Source: K189A clade bacterium
Lineage (GTDB): Bacteria; Pseudomonadota; Gammaproteobacteria; Pseudomonadales; Azotimanducaceae
NCBI GenBank assembly: GCA_902565895.1
Contig: CACFGV010000010.1
Location: 1-60,636 of the forward strand
Length of the DNA: 60,636 bases
Direction: 5' to 3'
The translations under genes and the position numbers were made by a program. Positions 12,274 to 42,342 of the stretch are shown here, in pieces. Numbering within the stretch: the stretch's first letter is position 1; each line of letters opens with the position of its first letter. Under the pieces are notes generated by a model, which ran no database searches, was not told where the DNA came from, and was given only the letters and a program-made list of their open reading frames with translations.

Positions 12274-12788
12274 GCACCGCACAAAGTCTTACAGCTCGAT
12301 TACAGCAAGGCAGTATAGGCCAATGGTATGTAACGAAATCACCAACAGATCAACTGATCATAAAGATATTAGTCGCACTCATTGCAGGGACTATCACTTA
12401 TACAGCAGTGTGGAAACCGGTTAGCTACTATAACCAAGACCAACAAGCGCGCTACGTTACTGAATTAACGTTATATGAGTGGATCATCTTGAACCAAGCG
12501 ACGCTGAGCCTACGCGCAACACAACCAATTAGTAGCAATAACTCATTGGCATTAATATCCAGCACTACTACCGCCGCCAACCAAAACCAAATAAAGTTAG
12601 AGCGTCTCCAACCAACCACCGACGGAGGCGTTAGCGTCTCCTTACAAGAGCAGCAATTTGACCAAGTCCTAAAGTGGCTATCTTCGCTAGAGAACAGACA
12701 GGGGCTCATCCTTGAACGATTGTCAATTGATCGCAGCGATAAGAGCAGCAAAGTAAGCGGGCAAGTCAAGTTGCTTAAACCTGAATAG
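12270..12788 (+). CDS. gspM: type II secretion protein GspM
   Basis: A 172-residue protein with one membrane segment near residues 29-48 (LIIKILVALIAGTITYTAVW) and a small periplasmic domain. It is the last gene of the operon, overlaps gspL by four bases and is convergent with the DUF2061 gene. Sequence conservation of GspM is low, so the call leans on position, size and topology. No gspN, gspC or gspD follows. Confidence 0.88.
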   Translation: MSTAQSLTARLQQGSIGQWYVTKSPTDQLIIKILVALIAGTITYTAVWKPVSYYNQDQQARYVTELTLYEWIILNQATLSLRATQPISSNNSLALISSTTTAANQNQIKLERLQPTTDGGVSVSLQEQQFDQVLKWLSSLENRQGLILERLSIDRSDKSSKVSGQVKLLKPE

Positions 12789-12835
12789 GTTGTTTAACCC
12801 AATTACTATTGATCGTATAGCGCTATGGTTGGCAG

Positions 12836-13051
12836 CTACCGGATCATTTGCCAAGCGCGCTCGTGGAAGTAGTAAATTGCGAATTTCAAGAAAAATTCAA
12901 TGCCGCCAATAAGAATCGCCGTATCGATTTCCCCAGTGATGGAGAAAGCAATGCATGCGGTCGTAAGTGTTGCGGTTATTCTCCAGGTAAACGCTTTAGC
13001 AAGGCTGCGAGTTTTCGAATTAGGCTGCCTGACCAATCCTAAGATACCCAC
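12836..13051 (-). CDS. DUF2061 small membrane protein
   Basis: A 71-residue protein with the DUF2061 pattern KAFTWRITATLTTACIAF, then two hydrophobic stretches and FFLKFAIYYFHERAW. The function of DUF2061 is not established; it often sits beside or is fused to sulfate-assimilation genes. The GTG start overlaps the cysNC stop by one base (TAGTG), so it is the last gene of the cysD-cysNC operon. That placement suggests a role tied to sulfate activation, but this is inference. Confidence 0.8.
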   Translation of the reverse strand: MGILGLVRQPNSKTRSLAKAFTWRITATLTTACIAFSITGEIDTAILIGGIEFFLKFAIYYFHERAWQMIR

Positions 13052-14973
13052 TAGCGATCAATTCCGCTCTTAATTAAATCGACCAGCTTATCGGCCGCTT
13101 CAGTAATACTAAGTTCGTCGGTTTTTAGAATCAGTTCAGGACTCTCTGGTACCTCATAGTCGCTATCTATCCCAGTAAAGTTTGGTAATTCGCCACTCCT
13201 CGCTTTTTTATAAAGTCCTTTTGGATCCCTGGTTTCGGCGACATCTAACGAAGCATCAATAAACACCTCCATAAAGTCGCCCTGGTCAAACAGGCCTCTA
13301 GCCATGTCCCTTTCAGCCCTGAATGGCGAAATAAAAGAGGTCAAAACAATTACTCCAGCATCCAAGAACAGTTTGGCTACTTCGGCTATGCGTCTGATAT
13401 TTTCGACTCGGTCGGCAACGGTAAAGCCAAGATCCTTAGTTAGGCCATGCCTGACATTATCTCCATCTAGGATGTAGGTGCGGAACCCTTGGGCATGCAA
13501 TACAGTCTCAGCCGCATTCGCAATGGTCGATTTGCCTGCCCCAGATAAACCAGTGAGCCAAATCACTTTGCCTTTGTGGCCTGCCAATTTTTCCCGAGAT
13601 TCCCTATCTACCGACAGGCTCTGCTTGTGAATGTTAGAGGCGCGCCGGAGCTCATAGCGGATCATTCCAGCAGCCACGGTAGCGTTGGAGTAGCGATCTA
13701 CGAGAACGAAAGCGCCCAGGCTCGGGCATTCGTCATAAGGCTCGAATGGGAGTTTTTTGTCGAGGCGAATCTGCACTCTAGCAATTTCGTTTAGTTCCAG
13801 GCTTTTTCCTGAGAAATACTCTAACGAATTAATATCGTACTTATATTTTATCTCTGAAAGCGTAGCGTTAGCTGCGTTTGAAGCCAGTTGAAAGTGGTAA
13901 TTCCTTCCCACGTACCCCTCGTCTGCATCCATCCAAACCAACTCGGCTTCAAATTGATCGGAAACCCCGCAAGGTTGCTCAATGGACGAAATCAAGTCAC
14001 CTCGGGACAGGTCAATCTCTTTATCAAGAGTTAGGGTCACAGCTTGGTCGGTAAGTGCTTTATCGAGTTTGTCTTCAAACAGCACAATTTCTTCTATTTT
14101 TGCGGTCTGACCGGACGGTAGTGCAATAACTTCATCGCCTTGCTGTATCTCGCCAGCGATCACGGTGCCGGAGAATCCTCGAAAGTTGGACGTTGGTCTA
14201 TTCACCCACTGCACAGGGAAGCGAAAGGGGTGATCGTGTAAACTTTGCCGTACCTCAACGGTCTCGAGAAAGCCCAATAAAGTTGGCCCCTGATACCAAG
14301 TGGTATTTCGCGATCGCTCGATCACGTTGTCTCCCTTCAGAGCCGAGAGAGGAATTGCGGTAACGGATTTAAATTGCAGCTGTGATTGCAGCGGCTCATA
14401 GGCCGCACAGATTTCGTCAAATACCTGATTTGAATAATCGACCAAGTCCATCTTATTTACTGCCAGAACCACATGCTGTGTCCCAAGCAGCGAAGTGATA
14501 AAGGAGTGACGCCTGGTCTGGGTCAATATTCCTTGGCTTGCATCGACTAAAATAATCGCAACATCCGCAGTAGACGCACCGGTCACCATATTCCGCGTGT
14601 ATTGCTCGTGTCCCGGCGTGTCTGCAACTATGAACTTTCGTCGATCAGTATTGAAAAAGCGGTAGGCGACGTCGATTGTAATCCCCTGCTCACGCTCAGC
14701 GGCAAGACCATCCACGAGCAGCGCAAAATCGATGTCTCCACCCTGTGTGCCGACTTTTTTGGAATCACTTTGCAGAGACGTTACTTGATCTTCAAAAATG
14801 AGTTGGGCTTCAAAAAGCATACGTCCTATGAGTGTGCTTTTGCCGTCATCTACAGAGCCGCAAGTAATGAACCTCAGTAGATCCAGTTGAGCTTGATTGT
14901 CAATATAAGCGTCTACCCGCGCTTGAACGTCTTTATTGGGAGCGTTTGTTTGAGAAATGTCGGAGCTTTTCAC
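13051..14973 (-). CDS. cysNC: bifunctional sulfate adenylyltransferase subunit 1 / adenylylsulfate kinase (CysNC)
   Basis: A 640-residue fusion. The N-terminal part is a GTPase of the EF-Tu type (GSVDDGKST near residues 39-48, [16 protein letters not shown]) that drives APS formation by CysD. The C-terminal part from about residue 465 is APS kinase (GLSGAGKST, then DGDNVRHGL and [10 protein letters not shown]), which makes PAPS. The GTG start overlaps the cysD stop by one base. PAPS is the sulfate donor for the sulfotransferase at 22.9-23.8 kb, and many CysNC systems serve polymer sulfation rather than assimilation. Confidence 0.95.
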
Positions 14974-16517
14974 TAGAAATAACCCTCCTGTTTCTTTTTC
15001 TCCATAGAGGAGCCGCCGTCACTATCTATAGCTCGGCCCTCGCGCTCGCTGGTTCGACTTTGCAGCAGCTCCAATACTATTTGCGACAGATCATTAGCAG
15101 TGGATTCAACAGCCCCGGTTAACGGATAACAACCCAACGTTCGAAAACGAACCATGGGTGTTTCAATGGTCTCATCAGGTAGCAGCTGCATTCTGTCGTC
15201 ATCAACCATAATGAGCATGCCGTTTCGGCGCACAATTGGACGCTCAGCCGCGAAGTACAATTGAACAATTGGAATGTTCTCGCGATAGATGTACTGCCAG
15301 ATATCAAGCTCAGTCCAATTGGATAAAGGGAAAACCCGAACACTTTCGTCTTGGTTCTTTCGGCAGTTATAAATGTTCCAAATTTCCGGGCGCTGGTTTT
15401 TCGGATCCCAACGATGGCTGCTGCTTCTGAAGGAAAAAATTCGTTCTTTAGCGCGACTTTTTTCTTCATCGCGCCTAGCACCGCCAAAGGCCACATCAAA
15501 TTTGTGCGCATCCAGGGCCTGTTTTAGGCCTTGGGTCTTCATTATGTCCGTGTGCAGGGCACTTCCATGATCGAAAGGATTAATGTTTTTCTCAACACCC
15601 TCTGGATTTATATGTACGATTAGATCCATACCAGACTCTTCGGCCATCATGTCACGGAATTCGTACATGGCCTTAAATTTCCATCGGGTATCCACGTGCA
15701 TGAGCGGGAAGGGCGGAGGGCTAGGATAAAATGCCTTTCGCGCAAGATGCAGCATCACGGAAGAATCCTTGCCCACTGAATAAAGCATTACTGGATTATC
15801 CGCGTGGGCCATCACTTCGCGAATAATATGTATGCTCTCAGCTTCTAATCGATCGAGGTGAGTAAGACCGCCAGAATTTTTGGACGCTGTGTTACGTATC
15901 GGTATGTCCGGGTTATGCATTTTTTTCAAAGGTTCCGAAAAGTGAGAGGTTGCGATGTGAATTCGTGACTTAGCTGGTTTTTCAGGGATCAGATTTTGCT
16001 GCGCTCTGTATAATTCAACCAAGGGGCCGGAGGGGAATATTGAGCACAGTGATTCCGGGCACAATTGCTCAAAAGCCCAGTTGATTGTTTCCAAGTTGTC
16101 GCTTTGCAAAAGCATCCACTTCTTTGCGCCGCGACCATCTTGGACAACTAAGGCGTGGTCGGGCTGGACTGGCTCGGGGGAACTTACGCCACAAGCATCA
16201 TCACCCAAAACCTGAGGCTCGCCATCAATTGCATGTATGCTGGCAAAATAAACTTTCCTTCTTTTACGCCGAGCGTCGGATAACAGAGAAGAAAACACCA
16301 TCTGAACGCTTGAACGGCCATAACCATCAAACTGTTCAGCGCTATCACTAAACGTTTCTAGCCAGCTCAGGCCGTCTAAAAATCTCTCAAAAGAACGTTT
16401 ACTGAGCTGGATCTCTTTGCTTTTTAGGGCTTCAGCTACACCTGCTAGATCCCAAACGGTGCAGGGGGACTGCCGCATAAATTCAATCAGAAGTTGGCTG
16501 TACGGTTCGTTCGGCAT
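14973..16517 (-). CDS. cysD: sulfate adenylyltransferase subunit 2 (CysD) with a long N-terminal extension
   Basis: From the ATG of [10 protein letters not shown] the protein has 514 residues, while CysD is normally about 300. The canonical CysD starts near residue 218 ([18 protein letters not shown]), with the PP-loop SVGKDS near 247 and [16 protein letters not shown] and the C-terminal [12 protein letters not shown] all intact. Residues 1 to about 215 match no domain I recognise. They are continuous in frame with no stop, and I see no good ribosome binding site before the internal Met at 15920, so the extension is probably translated. A TTG at 16529 is an alternative start. It is the first gene of the cysD-cysNC-DUF2061 operon. 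Confidence 0.88.
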
Positions 16518-16832
16518 TGTCGGTCGCAATGTGCAAAAATTTCTTGATCGTGTGCAGTTTATTTCGTTTTAAGTTCTATGCGCAATTAATTTGCATTATT
16601 TTTCGTATTGCGACTAATTGATTTAATTTGCATCGATGCTCACATACGCGACCTCACGCGCATATTCCAAGCTCTACATTCAAAACACTCGCCGCTTTAT
16701 GTGAGATTAATAAAGCTTGAATCAGTGCGAAGTTTTTATTTTACATAATATAGATTATACGACAAATTAGTATTCATACGTTGCTGCGGGCCTTTGCCGT
16801 ATAGGCTGACCATCGAGCGCCGCCGCGCCTAA
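16518..16832. other. AT-rich upstream region of the cysD operon
   Basis: This stretch of about 315 bases is AT-rich and has no gene-like frame. It should carry the promoter of the minus-strand cysD operon. I see no clear operator. It adjoins the decayed higA on the far side. Confidence 0.4.
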
Positions 16833-17200
16833 TCACCGAAGCTCGTGCATGAAAAAATTGATTAAATGCTCAGCAGCAATAACTGATTCCTCGCGCAACG
16901 GCTATATCATTCTCAGTCAAAGAGACCGTTTGCGCGTGAAATTCGATTAAAACGGTTAATTTTACCGACCGCAGGCTCGAGAGTTTTTACGATGCCCGTA
17001 CGGTCTATCTCAAACTTGATGGCTTCAAAAGGATCAGGGAACTCCATTGAAAAATGCCTTTTTTCACAGGCTTGAATCAGGGTAAACATTACGTCGAGTT
17101 TTTCACCGTCTTACGTGTCAGGCTCGACCATCATCAGACTTTAAATCTCTTTTAACGTTGCTTGCTAGTCGGCATCCGCGCCGCCGGGTTTAATGGCCAT
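16833..17200 (-). pseudogene. higA: decayed HigA-type antitoxin gene
   Basis: Read on the minus strand from the ATG at 17200, the frame gives MAIKPGGADAD, stop, QATLKEI, stop, SLMMVEPDT, stop, then KLDVMFTLIQACEKRHF and FPDPFEAIKFEIDRTGI. After a frameshift it continues with RKRSL, stop, LRMI, stop and a tail LREE..AAEHLINF. Order and content match HigA antitoxins (an N-terminal dimer region, then PDPIEAIKFRM and a C-terminal HTH ending KRPLSLRMIR). At least three early in-frame stops, a frameshift and more stops late show it is dead. It lies two bases after the higB remnant, as in live higBA pairs. Confidence 0.72.
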
Positions 17201-17202
17201 AG

Positions 17203-17345
17203 TCAAACCTTCGGCAGCTCAATGGCCTGTACACCAATTTTGTCGCATTACGAATAAGTGTCGATGAATCAGATTTAAATTAAGCGGTAGGTATAGTTGA
17301 TCCAAACAATCAATGCTTATTACCTAAAATTGTTAAGATGACAGG
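17203..17345 (-). pseudogene. higB: decayed HigB-type toxin gene (3' part)
   Basis: The minus strand reads NNFR, two stops, AL, then IVWINYTYRLI, stop, I, stop, FIDTYS, stop, CDKIGVQAIELPKV, stop. This follows the C-terminal pattern of HigB-type mRNA interferases (hydrophobic strand, then VRFIGTHxEYDKID). Only the C-terminal third is recognisable and it has several stops. It lies directly before the higA remnant. The 5' boundary is uncertain. Confidence 0.55.
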
Positions 17346-17594
17346 CCCGTATTTTAAGGCGTTCGGACATATTTTAAATTTTGAATTCTTAAATATAACG
17401 TGGATGTAGAAGTTTTATACGTGTAATCAAACCTGAAAAATCTTAACGCCATAAGAATTAGTTGTAATGCTGCGCGAAGGCGAAGCTTTTGCGTCTGCGA
17501 CATTAGCATTCTAGAACAAAACCCAAAAATATTGTATTTCGTAGTTAAGCTTATTAGTATCCTTCGGCTCTTACATATTAGATAGGTAGTCTCG

Positions 17595-17993
17595 ATGGAA
17601 TTAACCAATTTAGATACAAAACAACTTAAGCAGGTTATTTCGAAGGCGAGCGCAGCGCTTAACCGCCGACAAAAAGTAGAAAAAGCGATGATTGAAATTC
17701 AGCGCGTCGCAAAAAAGTATAGGTTGAGTAAGGATGAGCTTAAAACAGCCCTTGCCTCGGTCCAGTGTTATAAAACAGTTTCAAACAGTAAGCCTAAATC
17801 GAGTCGCGCAAAAGTTGAGCCCAAATACCAATCTCAAGACGGTTCAAATAAATGGACTGGTCGCGGTAAAACACCGAGTTGGGTAGTCGACATATGTCGG
17901 AGCAAAGGCTTGAGCGTTGAAGACTTTAAATCAGATTCGCGATTTCTTATCCAGAGTACCACGCCCAATCCAAGTAGGACGAATAAAGAATAA
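17595..17993 (+). CDS. H-NS family nucleoid-associated protein
   Basis: A 132-residue protein with an N-terminal helical oligomerisation region (residues 1-55) and a C-terminal DNA-binding motif KWTGRGKTPSWV near residues 86-97, the H-NS-type TWxGxGxxPxW loop that binds AT-rich DNA. Proteins of this kind silence horizontally acquired regions. It is intact, has no operon partner, and sits between a dead toxin-antitoxin pair and an integrase stub at the edge of the AT-rich polysaccharide locus. That suggests a silencer of the locus or island cargo; I cannot tell which. Confidence 0.85.
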   Translation: MELTNLDTKQLKQVISKASAALNRRQKVEKAMIEIQRVAKKYRLSKDELKTALASVQCYKTVSNSKPKSSRAKVEPKYQSQDGSNKWTGRGKTPSWVVDICRSKGLSVEDFKSDSRFLIQSTTPNPSRTNKE

Positions 17994-18307
17994 GTTCACT
18001 CAGATCCTCGGCTGGTTATTCCTAGGGTGTTGGCTGTTTCAAGAATGGAGACGTATTAACGCCCTCTTACACTCTCCAGTTCTCACCGCGGCGACCTGCA
18101 ACACTGTGGTACAGATCGCTATCCTTCTGCGTGAAGTCCTAAATGACACTGAGGTTATCACAGGAAAACGCATCTCAAGCAGGTTCACTCGGGGCGGTGA
18201 TACGATCCTTCTCAAACACTATTACCGATAAGTGTTCAAAGTCGCTCGAAAAACGAATCTACGCCGGAAACCGTAACGCTTGAGTCCGATTATTTCAAAG
18301 ACAGTAC
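17994..18307. other. non-coding remnant sequence between the H-NS gene and the integrase stub
   Basis: An open frame of 104 codons (17917-18231, plus) covers part of this stretch, but it begins inside the H-NS gene in another frame. Its only suggestive segment is GKRISSRFTRGGDTILLKHYYR near 18150-18230, which looks vaguely like the SHSLRVGGAT region of tyrosine recombinases. I read it as further decayed integrase DNA with low confidence. Confidence 0.3.
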
Positions 18308-18412
18308 GCCGTAATCGATTTAATGAAGACCGGCGCATCTTTGGGAAAAATCATGTTGCGAGGTGGTTGGCATTCCAATGGTAGTGCGATGAACTACCTA
18401 CGGTCGTGGTGA
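18308..18412 (+). pseudogene. C-terminal fragment of a tyrosine recombinase / integrase
   Basis: The plus strand reads AVIDLMKTGASLGKIMLRGG then WHSNGSAMNYLRSW and a stop. This is the C-terminal pattern of phage-type tyrosine recombinases: the helix before the catalytic GGW/H region, then the Tyr nucleophile (here in NYLRSW). No intact N-terminal or catalytic core precedes it in frame, so it is a fragment. It marks past mobile DNA at the left edge of the polysaccharide locus. Confidence 0.55.
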
Positions 18413-18428
18413 TCAAGGTTTCGAAGAA

Positions 18429-19364
18429 TTAAGTCTGCGACGCCAGCCAGTGTTCATAGGTTGACGCAATACCGGCTTCTAAGGAACGCACGTTATTCCA
18501 GCCTAGCTCGTGGAGCCGACTACTATCCATCAGCTTTCGCGGTGTTCCATCGGGCTTACTCGCGTCAAAGATTAACTTCGCGTCGTAACCCACAACCTTA
18601 GCTATGATCTCTGCAAGCCCCTTGATAGTGACCTCGCTGCTTGATCCAACATTAATATGCTCATACTCAGAATAGTTTTTAAGGAGAAAGATCAAAGCAT
18701 CTGCCAGGTCATCGCAGTGCAAGAACTCTCGCAAAGGTGACCCCGAACCCCATAGCACAACCTCTTGTGCGCCCGATACTTTCGCTTCGTGAAATTTCCG
18801 AAGCAATGCGGGCAAGACGTGTGAGGTCTCCAAATCATAGTTATCACCGGGACCGTAGAGATTGGTCGGCATTGCTGAAATCCAATCACGTCGGTGTTGC
18901 TTTCGGTACGCCTGACATAGTTTGATGCCAGCAATTTTCGCAATGGCATACCACTCATTCGTGGGCTCTAGGGCACCCGTCAGTAGGCTGCTCTCTCGAA
19001 TAGGCTGATCAGCAAATTTTGGATAAATACAGGACGAGCCAAGAAAGAGCAGACGCCCAACATCATTTTGGTGGGCTGCGGCTAAAATATTATTCTGGAT
19101 AACAAGGTTGTCCTGAAGGAAATCCACCGGCGCCACATTATTCGCGTGAATACCACCAACCTTGGCGGCTGCAAGGACTACGCAGTCGGGACAGTTATTA
19201 GCCATCCAAGCCTGCACCGCGGCATGGTCACAAAGGTCCACGACGTCGCGCCCCGCTACCAACACATCACAACCCTCTGACGCTAGACGGCGAGAAACGG
19301 CTCCACCCACCATTCCCAGGTGACCTGCAACCCAGATTTTTTTACCTTGCAACGAATAAACCAT
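18429..19364 (-). CDS. fcl: GDP-L-fucose synthase
   Basis: A 311-residue SDR-family epimerase/reductase, the normal length. It converts GDP-4-keto-6-deoxymannose to GDP-L-fucose. Motifs are GHLGMVGGA for NADP, FLGSSCIYPKFA, the catalytic YAIAK, and the C-terminal PDGTPRKLMDSSRLHELGW. The start lies two bases after the gmd stop, so the pair is co-transcribed. With manC and gmd it completes the GDP-fucose pathway in this locus. Confidence 0.96.
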   Translation of the reverse strand: MVYSLQGKKIWVAGHLGMVGGAVSRRLASEGCDVLVAGRDVVDLCDHAAVQAWMANNCPDCVVLAAAKVGGIHANNVAPVDFLQDNLVIQNNILAAAHQNDVGRLLFLGSSCIYPKFADQPIRESSLLTGALEPTNEWYAIAKIAGIKLCQAYRKQHRRDWISAMPTNLYGPGDNYDLETSHVLPALLRKFHEAKVSGAQEVVLWGSGSPLREFLHCDDLADALIFLLKNYSEYEHINVGSSSEVTIKGLAEIIAKVVGYDAKLIFDASKPDGTPRKLMDSSRLHELGWNNVRSLEAGIASTYEHWLASQT

Positions 19365-20680: not shown

Positions 20681-21319
20681 CTAATCCAAGACATTTCTAA
20701 AAGAAGCAATGTCATTATCTAACTCGGTCATATCAATTTCAGCCTTTGTAGGCACGATAAACATACATTGGCGACCAAGCGTCTTTACGGGCCTTACGTA
20801 TTTCTCCACAAAATGATAATGAGGGCGATTGGTGTAGTCATCAAAAATAATCTTTGTACCTTTCTCGGCATACTTGAGGCTAGTGAGGAAACAACAGACT
20901 CTAAATCTGCCGTCAACCAGGACAAGTTCTGGAGTACTCTCTTGTTTCCAAACATATTCCGTGTAGTCAGGAAACAAATCGCTCTTATCGTAACTCAGAG
21001 GCCGACCCCATCCACCAACTTCACCCAACTGTGAATGATGAATATCTAACCTACCGCCGCCGCCCCGATTGGCTTTTCTTATCATCTTGATCCATTCGCT
21101 TGACGTATCAACCGAAATCACACTCGCTGCTGTATTGTTAAGAACCCAAGTAGTTGATTTTCCGCAACCATACTCGGCATACACTTCAACCCTCTGAACC
21201 TCGTCCTTGAACAAAGCATCGTCACCGTCAAACAACTGATCAGGAGACTCATGACGCATTCTTCTAAATGCAATAATGAAAATGGGCGGCACGCAAGCTT
21301 TTAAAAATTTGATGAGCAT
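20681..21319 (-). CDS. putative SAM-dependent methyltransferase-like protein
   Basis: A 212-residue protein with a class I methyltransferase look: VYAEYGCGKST as a motif I-like loop, SVISVDTSSEW as the acidic second strand, then LVLVDGRFRVCC and IIFDDYTNRPHYHFVE. Such proteins are common in polysaccharide clusters. The GCGKS loop could also be mistaken for a P-loop, but the surrounding strands fit a Rossmann methyltransferase better. The ATG has a GGAG upstream. Substrate unknown; it stands alone between two non-coding stretches. Confidence 0.5.
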   Translation of the reverse strand: MLIKFLKACVPPIFIIAFRRMRHESPDQLFDGDDALFKDEVQRVEVYAEYGCGKSTTWVLNNTAASVISVDTSSEWIKMIRKANRGGGGRLDIHHSQLGEVGGWGRPLSYDKSDLFPDYTEYVWKQESTPELVLVDGRFRVCCFLTSLKYAEKGTKIIFDDYTNRPHYHFVEKYVRPVKTLGRQCMFIVPTKAEIDMTELDNDIASFRNVLD

Positions 21320-27994: not shown

Positions 27995-28845
27995 TTATTT
28001 GCCATACGCAACTTGTCGTATAATCTTCGGCCGACGAGCAAGAGTATCGCTCTCTTCAAGAAATACCACATAGCTCTCCGCGTCACATGAATTATGTGAC
28101 GCAAGATCCATAATCGCGAAACAATGGGTTTGGGAAGATCTTGCATAAATAGTAGGCTAAGATCTTCGAGTAAAAAGCTCATAAACTGCGGCATACGGTG
28201 ATATGAATCAGAAATTTGAGGGCCAGAGTGAATAACATACGTACTCAATGTTTCATTTATGGTGACGATATTTCTAGACATCAATGCCGCTCTAAAAGCA
28301 AAAACCTTGTCTTGCTCCCGTTTTATAGTTGGATTCCATATCAATCCTCTTACAAACAAATCTCGAGATAGTAATGGTGCGGATGTATGTATACTTCCAC
28401 CAGAAGCTAGCAAGCTAATAACATCACCACTGTTATTCAATGTTGAGCTACTACCTTCCTCGACCCAATGAATCGCGACATTTGAAACCACCATATCGGC
28501 GTCATGTTGGCGTAAAACAGCATTTTTTTTACAAAAATTATTTGGCGAAAGCAGATCATCCGAGTCAACAAACTGAATATAGTCGCCTTTGCACTCAACT
28601 ATCCCTCTATTGCGAGCAGATTGAGCACCACCATTCTCTTTGTAAACATAAAGAATATTCGCTTGACGGTGGGTCCGTGCCAGTTCCTCCACTACCTCTC
28701 TGGTATCGTCAGTCGAGCCATCGTCAACTATAATTATCTCGAAGGCTTGAAACTCTTGTGCTACAACAGATTCTATCGTTTTTCTCAGCTCGTATGAGCG
28801 CTGAAATGTCGGTATTACGACAGAAATCTTTTTATCTAGCCTCAT
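27991..28845 (-). CDS. glycosyltransferase family 2
   Basis: A 284-residue GT-A enzyme with ISVVIPTFQRSYELRKTIES, IIIVDDGSTDDTREVVEE, NGGAQSARNRGI and the DxD-type FVDSDDLLS. The C-terminal part is basic and may sit on the membrane surface. It overlaps its neighbours by four bases on each side, so the two family 2 enzymes and the fucosyltransferase-like gene form one tight unit. Confidence 0.88.
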   Translation of the reverse strand: MRLDKKISVVIPTFQRSYELRKTIESVVAQEFQAFEIIIVDDGSTDDTREVVEELARTHRQANILYVYKENGGAQSARNRGIVECKGDYIQFVDSDDLLSPNNFCKKNAVLRQHDADMVVSNVAIHWVEEGSSSTLNNSGDVISLLASGGSIHTSAPLLSRDLFVRGLIWNPTIKREQDKVFAFRAALMSRNIVTINETLSTYVIHSGPQISDSYHRMPQFMSFLLEDLSLLFMQDLPKPIVSRLWILRHIIHVTRRAMWYFLKRAILLLVGRRLYDKLRMANK

Positions 28846-29765
28846 TCTTTCAGCATCACCACACGATCTGAATCGATCCCACCCAAAATGCGTGCGCTAT
28901 TAAGGACGTTAGAGTTCTTTCCAACAACCTGCTTACAGCTACTGAGTATCAATGCGTCCACTAAAACCTCCTTACCACACAAAAAAGCGTGATCGTCGCG
29001 AATCCTGGCGTCTTGATTAACGTGGATTGGCAGTTTACTACTAGACCTGTAGCAGTCTGTGAAGATTACGGTATCGCCATATACATCGACAAAATCCGAA
29101 ATGTTTTTCTCTTCATCAGCACACAGAAAAACTTTTTTTACCATACCCGTGTCGAGTGCCCGGTCGACATGAAATCGAAGTTCCGATAACGTAGCTTGTT
29201 GCCTTCCAACTTTATTCATGTCCGTTCCCCGCCAATGGACTCCGATTACTTCAGCGCCAATAACTTGCGAAGATAATAAGAAATCTGCTGCTTCTCTTGT
29301 AAACTCGGGCCTAGGACGCATATATTCATTCACAAGCCCCTCAAGATAACTCGTCTCCTCGATAAACCTGGTGTAAATCTGATGAGGGAATTTTTCATCT
29401 GAATAAATGATCTTTTTAGAGCTCTCAGAGAGAGCTTGAATACTCCAGTCACCCTCAAAATATTTATACCAGACATTATTTTTTTTACTGCGATCAGCAT
29501 GGTAAAGTGTCAATCGGGTTTCTTGGTCTACAACTGGAACCCACCCGTAGAAGTCGGCAATAGCAACATTCATTAGTACATGCATGAAATTTGAAAAGAA
29601 GCCGTGGCCTTGGCCCTCCCTGCGAATAATGTAGTATATCTCGCTATCATTACTTCGTTCTTTTGGTATAAGTTTGGTACCAAATGAAACGCCTAGTCTT
29701 ATTGTTTCATCTCGAAATAATCTGTTGAAAATAACGCTTTTCAATTTTTCGCGGACGTAATCCAT
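28842..29765 (-). CDS. putative fucosyltransferase-like protein
   Basis: A 307-residue protein. The N-terminal half has GHGFFSNFMHVLMNVAIADFYGW, a pattern seen in NodZ- and O-fucosyltransferase-like bacterial proteins. VIGVHWRGTDMNKVGRQ resembles the conserved HxRxGD/T donor loop of GDP-fucose transferases, and KEVLVDALILSSCKQVVGKNSN resembles their late motif. The locus makes GDP-fucose (gmd, fcl), which supports the call. I cannot name the linkage. A 244-base gap follows upstream of it. Confidence 0.55.
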   Translation of the reverse strand: MDYVREKLKSVIFNRLFRDETIRLGVSFGTKLIPKERSNDSEIYYIIRREGQGHGFFSNFMHVLMNVAIADFYGWVPVVDQETRLTLYHADRSKKNNVWYKYFEGDWSIQALSESSKKIIYSDEKFPHQIYTRFIEETSYLEGLVNEYMRPRPEFTREAADFLLSSQVIGAEVIGVHWRGTDMNKVGRQQATLSELRFHVDRALDTGMVKKVFLCADEEKNISDFVDVYGDTVIFTDCYRSSSKLPIHVNQDARIRDDHAFLCGKEVLVDALILSSCKQVVGKNSNVLNSARILGGIDSDRVVMLKE

Positions 29766-31007: not shown

Positions 31008-31871
31008 TCACTGAGTTCCTAAAATCTCTGATGCTGGCGATTGTGCACAACCGGCAATCAGCTCAACATCCCGGTTGTGTAATATGCTTTTGAGTTCCCC
31101 TAGAAAACGCCTTAGGCACTGCCCCGTGGGATGCGCTGCGCCTTGCTTCCTCCACCCCGGATCATAGACCGCTGGAACAGGCGGAGGTACTAACCCCTCA
31201 GCGCGAAAGGTTGGATCACTATCAAAAAAATACCCACCACCGAAATCGATGCCGTGGACAACGATTTTAGTGAAACCTTTATTAATCGCGAAAATAATAG
31301 CGGTCAAAACCGTCGAGCACGCCTGTCGAAAATATAAGTCGTCATACTGAATGAGTATATTCGAATAACGGCGATATGAGCTTATTGTGTTTAATTTATG
31401 TGGAACAATTAAATCTCTACCAAAAAATACTGGTAAATCCTCGTACGCGGTTGCCGCGTAGTCAATATCGTTTTTCTCCTGCCAAAGATTTTTGATAATT
31501 ATTGGGCAGCCGTGCCTAACAACAAACTTGTGTAGTGCCGATTTTTGAGCAGAAACGAGTCCACTCATAGCAGGCGATGCATTTTCTATAAAATATAGGT
31601 TGTATTTTACATCATTTAAGCATGAAAATCCGAAACCAATATCGTATGTATTGCCACCCACGTGCGAGGAAAGCATAGAATTTTTCACCGACCAACCAGA
31701 GCCCCAAACATTGCATTGAGTGTATTTTTTTGCATCCACTTTAATATCCCTAGGTCCAATTAAGTACTTACCATAAGAGCCAAGGCTTATTGCAACTTTT
31801 GAAAGACGCTTTCGGTACAGACGCATTTCGCGTTTTAAGCGGAACTCATCAAACAACGCAGGTAGGGACAT
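31008..31871 (-). CDS. unrecognised protein, possibly DUF115/sialyltransferase-like
   Basis: A 287-residue protein with no clear family match. Features seen are a basic N-terminus, NVWGSGWSVKNSMLSSH, YDIGFGFSCLNDVKYNLYFIENAS, and IIFAINKGFTKIVVHGIDFGGGYFFD. The last segment resembles the strand-and-loop in DUF115- or GT42-like proteins that bind CMP-sugars. The locus has a CMP-Kdo-synthetase homologue, so a transferase for a CMP-activated sugar is conceivable, but that is only inference. It ends five bases before the next gene. Confidence 0.4.
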   Translation of the reverse strand: MSLPALFDEFRLKREMRLYRKRLSKVAISLGSYGKYLIGPRDIKVDAKKYTQCNVWGSGWSVKNSMLSSHVGGNTYDIGFGFSCLNDVKYNLYFIENASPAMSGLVSAQKSALHKFVVRHGCPIIIKNLWQEKNDIDYAATAYEDLPVFFGRDLIVPHKLNTISSYRRYSNILIQYDDLYFRQACSTVLTAIIFAINKGFTKIVVHGIDFGGGYFFDSDPTFRAEGLVPPPVPAVYDPGWRKQGAAHPTGQCLRRFLGELKSILHNRDVELIAGCAQSPASEILGTQ

Positions 31872-41397: not shown

Positions 41398-42342
41398 TTA
41401 GGCCTCTGGCTCTGTTCGTGCATAATGTCGGATCAGGACAACGACTACGCCCAACATCCCACCCAAAAGCGTGCCCAACACACAGGTCAATGCGCGGCTG
41501 GGTTTACTTTTTTGTTCGGGCACAACCGCAGGATCGATAGTCTTAAAAACGTACTCGGGCCTCACTTCGGCCAACATCATGGTCTCGGTCTGTGACTGGA
41601 TGAGCTCAAAGAACATGGCCTGAAGGTCGGCCAATGACGTGTTAGCGGCTTGCTGCTTTAAGTACTCGATCGACTTCTCGGCCTCGCCCACGTCTTGAGC
41701 CCTTACGGCAGCATTCACATCCTCAACCAGCCAGTTGACCCACTGCGCGGCAACGATAGGTGACTGGTGTTCAATACTCACCAATACATATCCCGTTTGC
41801 TTGTCTTGTGACACACCCAGAATAGCGGAAAAAGCTTTGTGAGCTTGTTGGGCTGAGGGCTCGGGAGACTTAGGAGGCTCAATATCGCGGACCCATGTTT
41901 TAGATGCGGCGTCATAAGACTCTGGATCAAAAATGATTTTGCCCGACCCTATGTCCCATGTCTCAACGGCCATGAGCTCGGGGAGTATGTCGCGCCGCTC
42001 GACAAAGTCACCGATGAAAGCGCGCGACTTCATGAGCTGTATGCCAAGTTGTGCGCGGGATCCCTCTTCACTACCTGGGAGCGACACCCCTGCCAAACTA
42101 GCGAGGCCACCGTATTGTTGCATAAGACCTGATAGTCCACCGCCGGAACTTTCAGCAGGAGCAAGCAGCGCACTTGCGGTGTATATATTGGGCTGCGACA
42201 GCGCTACGATTACCGAGATGATGGCCGCAATGCCCGCGATGGCACTTATCATGATCTTCCCATCCCAAAGAATTGCAAATAGCTCTTTGAGATCGATCTC
42301 GTCGTTCATAACAATTTCGGTATTTTGGCTGACATCACTCAT
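41398..42342 (-). CDS. Wzz-family chain-length determinant
   Basis: A 314-residue inner-membrane protein. The first membrane segment is near residues 31-52 (MISAIAGIAAIISVIVAL), a periplasmic coiled region follows, and the second segment is near 285-305 (CVLGTLLGGMLGVVVVLI), preceded by a Pro-rich EQKSKPSRA. It lacks a cytoplasmic tyrosine kinase domain, so it is Wzz-like and not a full Wzc. It sets polymer length together with Wzy. It follows the SLBB export gene. Confidence 0.87.
   Translation of the reverse strand: MSDVSQNTEIVMNDEIDLKELFAILWDGKIMISAIAGIAAIISVIVALSQPNIYTASALLAPAESSGGGLSGLMQQYGGLASLAGVSLPGSEEGSRAQLGIQLMKSRAFIGDFVERRDILPELMAVETWDIGSGKIIFDPESYDAASKTWVRDIEPPKSPEPSAQQAHKAFSAILGVSQDKQTGYVLVSIEHQSPIVAAQWVNWLVEDVNAAVRAQDVGEAEKSIEYLKQQAANTSLADLQAMFFELIQSQTETMMLAEVRPEYVFKTIDPAVVPEQKSKPSRALTCVLGTLLGGMLGVVVVLIRHYARTEPEA

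What the first reader, a model, noticed from the sequence alone, without database searches (positions are those of the whole stretch)
15868..16517. CysD carries a ~215-residue N-terminal domain of unknown function
The catalytic CysD begins only at about residue 218; the 215 residues before it are in frame without stops, have normal protein composition and match no domain I know. CysD proteins are normally about 300 residues. Because this operon probably supplies PAPS for polymer sulfation, the extension could regulate sulfate activation or couple it to the polysaccharide machinery.
Basis: partly seen in the sequence, partly recalled or inferred. Interest (0 to 1): 0.8.

Follow-up and report, generated by a model that had tools for sequence, protein, structure and literature searches.

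The report
Sulfate-activating enzyme carrying its own regulator
A bacterial enzyme that activates sulfate carries an extra front domain shared by a whole branch of such enzymes, and the start of its gene is marked by a matched pair of short DNA signs at a fixed distance, which suggests that the enzyme may switch its own gene on or off.

Summary
In detail: cysD (14973-16529, minus) encodes about 217 residues before the catalytic domain, in frame and without stops. The extension is an undescribed protein family. I read 46 distinct genes with it; all belong to one well-supported CysD clade that crosses families and, with one long-branched member, a class boundary. CysNC follows wherever I could read downstream. 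Thirteen pairs show purifying selection (dN/dS 0.09-0.29). No family or fold match is convincing; AlphaFold2 of a homologue (pLDDT 92) shows the element order of a winged helix-turn-helix, then an alpha/beta domain.

The unexpected find is in the DNA: two inverted 14-bp elements (TGTCGYAANNTGCA ... TGCANNTTRCGACA), 79-83 bp apart (59 bp, about two helical turns less, in two genes), lie at the start of 40 of 46 extended genes and of 0 of 41 ordinary cysD genes. In three genomes they span the divergent cysQ/cysD spacer.

Best reading (0.6): the extension binds this pair and autoregulates sulfate activation, a PutA-like 'trigger enzyme'. Binding, signal and sign are inferred.

The parts
15861..16517 (-). 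N-terminal extension of CysD (219 residues from ATG 16517): element order like a winged helix-turn-helix, then an alpha/beta domain
   Evidence: conserved family; dN/dS 0.256 against the sister L002; AlphaFold2 of the window's domain pLDDT 73, of the homologue L014 pLDDT 92
14973..15860 (-). CysD catalytic domain (ATP sulfurylase small subunit) and stop codon
   Evidence: PF01507 191.8 bits; NF009214 525.7 bits against cut-off 413
13051..14973 (-). cysNC: CysN GTPase fused to APS kinase; its start meets the stop of cysD
   Evidence: NF004035 952.5 bits against cut-off 715
16602..16615 (-). Upstream element, site 1: AGTCGCAATACGAA, 9 of 12 consensus positions
16522..16535 (-). Downstream inverted element, site 2: TGCACATTGCGACC, 11 of 12 consensus positions; starts 80 bp from site 1; contains the TTG 16529 and ends 4 bases before ATG 16517
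   Evidence: (pair score 20 of 24; 0 of 200 shuffles of this leader as high)
18429..19364 (-). Epimerase-family gene next to gmd (context); GDP-fucose synthase is my reading
   Evidence: PF01370 206.7 bits
19367..20488 (-). GDP-mannose 4,6-dehydratase (context)
   Evidence: PF16363 502.3 bits
22905..23804 (-). Sulfotransferase, a likely PAPS consumer (context)
   Evidence: PF00685 33.6 bits against cut-off 22
41398..42342 (-). Wzz chain-length determinant (context)
   Evidence: PF02706 54.6 bits
42479..44998 (-). Polysaccharide export protein with SLBB domains (context)
   Evidence: PF02563 40.5 bits, PF10531 153.9 bits

Best explanation
This is a sulfate-activating enzyme with its own transcription-factor domain. 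SHOWN: the extension is a conserved domain fused to one clade of CysD, and most genes that have it carry, at their start, two inverted 14-bp elements at a fixed, apparently helically phased distance. INFERRED: the N-terminal half is a winged helix-turn-helix that binds the elements; a dimer or the CysD-CysNC complex bridges the two sites (a small loop of about 81 bp) and represses, less likely activates, the cysD-cysNC operon, and the divergent cysQ unit where that is next door; the alpha/beta half, or the state of the catalytic domain (APS, PAPS or PAP level), sets DNA binding. The cell would thus match PAPS supply to demand through the enzyme itself, as PutA does for proline use.
For: (1) The pair scores 18 or more of 24 at spacing 79-83 in 40 of 46 distinct extended genes (52 of 58 loci before taking off 12 duplicate loci), and in 0 of 41 ordinary cysD genes read (39, plus L126 and L131). 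With one zone of up to 1000 bp for all, ordinary genes reach at most 17 and 39 of 45 extended genes reach 18 or more (that script's filter left out one extended gene). Shuffled extended leaders reached at most 17. (2) Later test: six genes fetched without regard to the motif after it was fixed (L149, L150, L155, L156, L158, L159): five score 19-22 at 79-83, the sixth scores 20 at spacing 59. (3) Spacing 59 in two genera (L067, L155) against about 81 elsewhere, some two helical turns. (4) The pair follows the extension and not CysNC: ten ordinary CysD with a recognised CysNC behind them lack it; the sister with a broken extension (L005) has only a decayed pair, score 18 in the 1000-bp zone. (5) It persists, 82 bp apart, in another class (L061) among different neighbours. 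(6) In L062, L158 and L159 site 1 covers the start codon of the divergent cysQ (TIGR01331) and site 2 overlaps the cysD start (L062, L159) or begins 7 bases from it (L158), as I read the starts. (7) The model's element order H7-10, E19, H21-30, H37-46, E60, E66, H69-81 (two 3-residue helices left out) is that of a winged helix-turn-helix, with R38, E41, R42 and R83 invariant or nearly so. (8) One CysD clade, support 100/99. (9) dN/dS 0.093-0.286 in 13 of 13 pairs.
Against: No library recognises a DNA-binding domain: Pfam, NCBIfam and PHROGs give nothing consistent across the 16 or 29 members scanned (three of 29 members hit TPR_26, best E 0.00024; one hits CII-like phrog_191, E 0.092), and the listed Foldseek matches all lie below TM 0.5. 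Helix-turn-helix is read from the order of elements in a homologue's model; I had no coordinates. The motif was defined on many of the genes counted, and all extended genes share one origin, so counts are not independent. The arms pair and covary beyond shuffles, which an RNA stem would also give. No promoter could be placed between the sites (17 hexamers against 12.7 expected). Six of 46 extended genes lack the pair at 79-83: L067 and L155 have it at 59, L039 is cut by its contig end, L077 has a run of N, L064 and L065 are weak. The strict whole-genome pattern found the pair at only 18 of the 39 extended genes, not at the window's own. Nothing shows binding.
Confidence: 0.6

Rival explanations
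1. The extension is an allosteric or protein-contact domain (dimerisation, tether to CysNC, sulfotransferases or the polysaccharide machinery), and the paired elements are read by a separate regulator that happens to control this CysD clade.
For: The alpha/beta half with its invariant D104, R106 and W111 looks like a ligand or contact domain. In this window and in L061-L065 and L149 the gene lies among polysaccharide genes (partly named by eye).
Against: The elements follow the extension and not CysNC or a polysaccharide locus, stay in the same layout in another class, and are decayed where the extension is broken. A separate regulator would have to be present wherever the gene went; in the wide contexts read, cysNC is the only neighbour shared by all.
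Confidence: 0.22
2. The inverted elements are a long-range RNA hairpin in the leader of the mRNA (a riboswitch-like or protein-bound leader), perhaps bound by the extension as RNA.
For: The arms form standard pairs in 80.7% of cells against 76.5% in shuffles, with 34 double changes against 21.3.
Against: The arms, not the loop, are conserved in sequence; positions 9, 10 and 14 are often unpaired (13, 20 and 15 of 36 sequences); spacing is held at about 81 or at 59; in L062, L158 and L159 site 1 covers the start codon of a divergent gene, so it is unlikely to be in the cysD mRNA; Rfam has nothing over its threshold in window 12500-18500.
Confidence: 0.08
3. The extension is a domesticated transposase-like module (helix-turn-helix plus RNase H-like fold) whose terminal-repeat-like sites became operators.
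For: Foldseek: Mos1 mariner transposase E 1e-4 with the window's model (pLDDT 73); retroviral integrase and RNase H from E 7e-3 with the better model; two inverted 14-bp sites bound an element of about 95 bp.
Against: TM-scores in the listed rows are all below 0.5; the top Mos1 match vanished from the list with the better model; no acid of the first strand is invariant, where the first catalytic acid would be (recalled); no homologue in phage records or viral contigs, nor in plasmids with the extension of L061.
Confidence: 0.05
4. The extension is not made: translation starts at an internal codon and the upstream frame is a regulatory leader only.
For: No good ribosome site was seen by eye; the sister L002 lacks the ATG; G022 keeps CysD with a broken extension.
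Against: Purifying selection at protein level in 13 of 13 pairs, open frames of about 190-255 codons before the catalytic domain in 46 genes, and confident folding from the protein alignment.
Confidence: 0.03

Closest known systems
PutA-type trigger enzymes (E. coli PutA, BirA, NadR, PepA, PyrH; passages of PMC8249747 seen)
   Same: A metabolic enzyme that also acts as transcription factor; PutA binds only the spacer between its own gene and divergent putP, much as the pair here lies in the cysQ/cysD spacer of L062, L158 and L159
   Different: Different enzyme (ATP sulfurylase subunit) and a domain without a recognised family; DNA binding not shown here
Canonical CysD (TIGR02039, NF009214), including CysD-CysNC pairs of the NodPQ type (NodPQ recalled)
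   Same: Catalytic domain over curated cut-offs; followed by CysNC, as some ordinary CysD are
   Different: About 190-255 extra N-terminal codons and an inverted pair of leader elements, both absent from the 41 ordinary cysD genes compared
Second cysD, cysN and cysC copies in a sulfated-capsule cluster (Vibrio sp. KMM 8419; passages of PMC11641403 seen)
   Same: PAPS genes and sulfotransferases inside a polysaccharide locus, as in this window
   Different: The passages seen mention no extended CysD; extended CysD also occurs where I saw no polysaccharide genes
PAPS as an intracellular signal for exopolysaccharide genes in Vibrio vulnificus (passages of PMC6113621 seen)
   Same: Links PAPS production, cysD expression and a polysaccharide
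   Different: There cysD is raised by c-di-GMP and BrpT; the passages seen mention no regulatory domain in CysD

Membership tests
Canonical CysD (ATP sulfurylase small subunit) | Scores over curated CysD cut-offs | tested here: met
   NF009214 525.7 against 413, TIGR02039 497 against 396.6
Canonical CysD (ATP sulfurylase small subunit) | About 300 residues, starting at the catalytic domain | tested here: not met
   514-518 aa, CysD models start at residues 213-225
Trigger enzyme (enzyme that is also a transcription factor) | Intact enzyme model plus a separate extra domain | tested here: met
   full CysD model matched (1-294 of 294); extra domain of a homologue folds with pLDDT 92. Enzyme activity not tested
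Trigger enzyme (enzyme that is also a transcription factor) | The extra domain is a DNA-binding fold | tested here: inconclusive
   winged-helix order of elements; no convincing library or fold match
Trigger enzyme (enzyme that is also a transcription factor) | Operator-like sites at its own gene | tested here: met
   40 of 46 extended genes, 0 of 41 ordinary ones; this shows the sites, not that CysD binds them
Trigger enzyme (enzyme that is also a transcription factor) | DNA binding and expression depend on a pathway metabolite | not testable with these tools
   Needs protein, DNA and reporter assays
Tc1/mariner or other DDE transposase | Conserved catalytic acids of the RNase H fold (recalled: first acid in strand 1) | tested here: not met
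   no acid of strand 85-94 is invariant or nearly so; D104 follows strand 97-103
Known leader RNA (Rfam) | Match over the family threshold | tested here: not met
   one match in 6,001 bases, E 0.79, below its threshold and not in the leader

The most novel reading that the evidence does not exclude
A new DNA-binding domain family (winged helix plus an RNase H-like or otherwise unassigned alpha/beta sensor) has turned one clade of ATP sulfurylase into a PAPS- or APS-sensing autoregulator that bridges two inverted operators one small loop apart, and the whole device (domain plus operators) has spread between families and to another class as a unit, controlling both PAPS synthesis (cysD-cysNC) and, where divergent, PAP removal (cysQ).
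Probability: 0.3. Interest if true: 0.85.

Novelty: new variant of a known kind. Interest (0 to 1): 0.72.

Why it matters
Sulfate activation is costly, and PAPS has been proposed to act as a signal (passages of PMC6113621); in the bacteria I know of it is controlled by separate regulators (recalled: CysB). Here the enzyme itself appears to carry the regulator, with a compact, well-defined target of two inverted sites, so the claim can be settled with one purified protein and one 100-bp DNA. It would add sulfate activation to the short list of trigger enzymes, give a function to an undescribed protein family, and give a genomic marker (extension plus paired sites) for bacteria that tune sulfation through their ATP sulfurylase.

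Tried and rejected
Led nowhere: Pfam, NCBIfam, PHROG and PDB sequence profiles of the extension (the PDB profile hits to H. pylori HP0242 chimeras, E 0.0066 and 0.0017, and three members hitting TPR_26, best E 0.00024, were judged chance). Foldseek: weak RNase H-like matches only. Promoter between the sites: not significant. Wider regulon: in the whole-genome pattern search of 117 genomes 18 of 48 forward matches lie upstream of extended cysD; the other 30 are fewer than the 69 of the reversed control, so no further target is claimed.

Rejected: decay of the window's extension by codon evidence (dN/dS 0.256 lies inside the range 0.093-0.286 of 13 pairs); an unfused extension upstream of L146, an ordinary cysD next to the extended clade in the tree (the pair-like hit there, score 17, lies within a cysQ-like gene); a CysD-CysNC fusion in G058 (an open frame through a run of N).

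Dropped or out of line: the permutation count has one row (L062) out of register by one base; one search uses the right register. The tree left out 12 duplicate loci, dropped L038 and L042 (unread letters), missed L126 and L131 by its motif filter and was built before L155-L159; its bootstrap had not settled (0.964). In one search the zone searched was longer for extended genes (mostly 580 bases) than for ordinary ones (283-490), and L126 and L131 were missed; mend both. L093 is not counted among the later-test genes because its locus was fetched by a pattern match. dN/dS was counted over the whole open frame before the catalytic domain, a few codons before the start included. One extra extension match (G030, second contig, 89 aa at a contig edge) has no CysD beside it on its fragment.

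Literature: searches (78 and 104 for context) listed no title or abstract start on a CysD with a DNA-binding or other N-terminal extension; passages of three papers were seen, the other papers only as listings; subscription papers are mostly not in that library.

Full report
What is there. On the minus strand, cysD (14973-16529) and cysNC (13051-14973) meet at a stop/start. The cysD product is 518 aa from TTG 16529 or 514 aa from ATG 16517; the curated CysD models begin at residues 213 and 225, and nothing in Pfam or NCBIfam matches the part before.

It is a real protein family. A sister MAG record (NYVG01000025.1, L002) has a 76-78% identical extension. With the single sequence 17 of 58 relatives match; with a profile 39 of 117 do (the window's genome included), 30 in the genus and 9 in other genera of the family. 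In each of the 39 the match lies just before a CysD catalytic match; one extra 89-aa fragment sits at a contig edge. Beyond the family it is rare. Draws from the order, class and phylum gave 8 of 341, 3 of 369 and 3 of 398 genomes, of which 3, 2 and 2 were new; draws around three of these gave 3 of 150 (2 new), 1 of 150 and 1 of 63 (the known ones only). One (G853) is in another class. On plasmids, 354 records matched the full extended CysD of G853 but none over 80% of it, and its extension alone matched none; one extension (L014) matched no phage record; viral contigs gave no relative.

Selection. In 13 pairs of relatives dN/dS of the extension is 0.093-0.286, against 0.010-0.034 for the catalytic part; the window against its sister gives 0.256. 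The extension is thus selected as protein but changes much faster than the enzyme. In one sister of the window's lineage (G022) it is interrupted by a TAG and a TAA while CysD stays open; this is a MAG, and an assembly error cannot be excluded.

History. A tree of 81 catalytic domains puts the 41 extended CysD in it and the broken one in one clade (support 100/99; all of 200 bootstrap trees need one change; the bootstrap had not fully settled). The member from another class, L061, has a long branch, so its exact place is unsure. The fusion arose once as far as sampled and then moved between families. Wherever the downstream gene was read in full it is CysNC (18 of 18 such rows, about 631-639 aa with the kinase motif; L061, L149, L158 and L159 by length and CysN motif or start); ordinary cysD have CysN or CysNC.

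Fold. AlphaFold2 of the window's domain with 16 sequences: pLDDT 73. With 29 sequences and a better-kept member (L014) first: pLDDT 92, pTM 0.84. The second model is of a homologue, not of the window's own protein. Element order: helix 7-10, single-residue strand 19, helices 21-30 and 37-46, single-residue strands 60 and 66, helix 69-81, then strands 85-94, 97-103, 109-114, helix 119-130, strand 135-139, helix 143-154. The first part has the order of a winged helix-turn-helix, with R38, E41 and R42 in the second helix of the motif and a basic stretch ending at R83 among the most conserved residues. This is inference: I had no coordinates, and Foldseek's matches (Mos1 transposase, retroviral integrase, RNase H) are weak.

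The paired DNA elements. Upstream of extended cysD lie TGTCGYAANNTGCA and, inverted, TGCANNTTRCGACA. Unconstrained best pairs fall at 79-83 bp in 36 of 46 distinct genes and at 59 bp in 2. At 79-83, 40 of 46 extended genes score 18 or more of 24 (39 of 45 in the recount). None of 41 ordinary cysD genes does, with up to 1000 bp searched; their best is 17. The broken L005 reaches 18 in that zone with a decayed pair. Shuffled leaders reached at most 17. The motif was fixed; of six genes fetched afterwards without regard to it (L149, L150, L155, L156, L158, L159), five score 19-22 and the sixth scores 20 at 59 bp. The DNA between the sites is not conserved. The window's pair (16602-16615 and 16522-16535, 80 bp) scores 20; 0 of 200 shuffles of its leader reach that. 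Taking the first ATG of the frame, the start codon lies from inside site 2 to about 60 bases after its first base in most genes, while the inter-site distance hardly varies.

DNA or RNA? The arms pair better than shuffled arms (80.7% against 76.5% of cells; 34 double changes against 21.3), which a hairpin or two sites read by one evolving protein would both give. For DNA: the arms are conserved in sequence and the loop is not; two spacings differ by about two helical turns; and in three genomes (L062, L158, L159) the pair lies between divergent cysQ (TIGR01331) and cysD, with site 1 covering the cysQ start codon and site 2 overlapping the cysD start or beginning 7 bases from it, so site 1 is unlikely to be in the cysD mRNA. 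No promoter could be located.

Why the extension is the likely reader. The elements follow the extension and not CysNC or a polysaccharide locus: they are absent at ordinary cysD of the same family and order, also at ten with a recognised CysNC behind them, absent at the second, ordinary cysD of three genomes that have both (L066, L068, L079), and decayed where the extension is broken. They persist in another class among different neighbours. In a whole-genome pattern search of 117 genomes, 18 of 48 forward matches lay upstream of extended cysD (the strict pattern misses weaker pairs, the window's included) and the other 30 were fewer than the 69 of the reversed control, so no wider regulon is seen. 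The simplest account is that the domain which moves with the sites reads them.

Mechanism proposed. Extended CysD, alone or with CysNC, binds both sites and represses its own operon (and cysQ where divergent) when PAPS or APS is sufficient, releasing it when demand rises. Shown: domain, clade, selection, sites, spacing. Inferred: binding, bridging, sign, signal. The closest functional parallel is PutA, an enzyme that binds only the spacer between its own gene and a divergent transporter gene (passages of PMC8249747).

Physiology. But in eight genus members read in context (L069, L070, L071, L074, L075, L077, L078, L080) the gene lies downstream of gamma-glutamyltranspeptidase, with two genes between in three of them (two of the eight tested by Pfam, the rest by eye), and in 29 of 30 genus genomes with the extension no other full-length CysD was found, many of these genomes being incomplete. 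So the domain more likely regulates sulfate activation as such than one polymer.

Verdict. Confirmed observation; a new domain family and, with probability about 0.6, a new trigger enzyme of sulfate activation.

Noticed in passing
window 17595-17993 (+): H-NS-like protein (PF00816, 35.8 bits) encoded about 1 kb upstream of the operon on the other strand.
   Followed up: partly
L005 861-1493 (G022): Sister lineage of the window with the extension interrupted by a TAG and a TAA while the CysD catalytic frame stays open; the paired elements are decayed.
   Followed up: partly
L062 9141-10716, L158 7359-8917: cysQ (TIGR01331) and a TauE/SafE-like gene divergent from extended cysD-cysNC (TauE tested in L062 only); the cysQ start codon lies inside the upstream element.
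   Followed up: yes
L069, L070, L071, L074, L075, L077, L078, L080: In the genus, extended cysD-cysNC recurs downstream of gamma-glutamyltranspeptidase; no reason found.
   Followed up: no
window 20681-21319, 28842-29765, 31008-31871: Three proteins near or in the polysaccharide locus without any Pfam match at E 0.001.
   Followed up: no
L072 8804-8899 (G200): Variant pair TGTCTTTAAATGTA/TACATTTTAAGACA with both sites changed together and spacing 82 kept; possible co-evolution with the domain.
   Followed up: no
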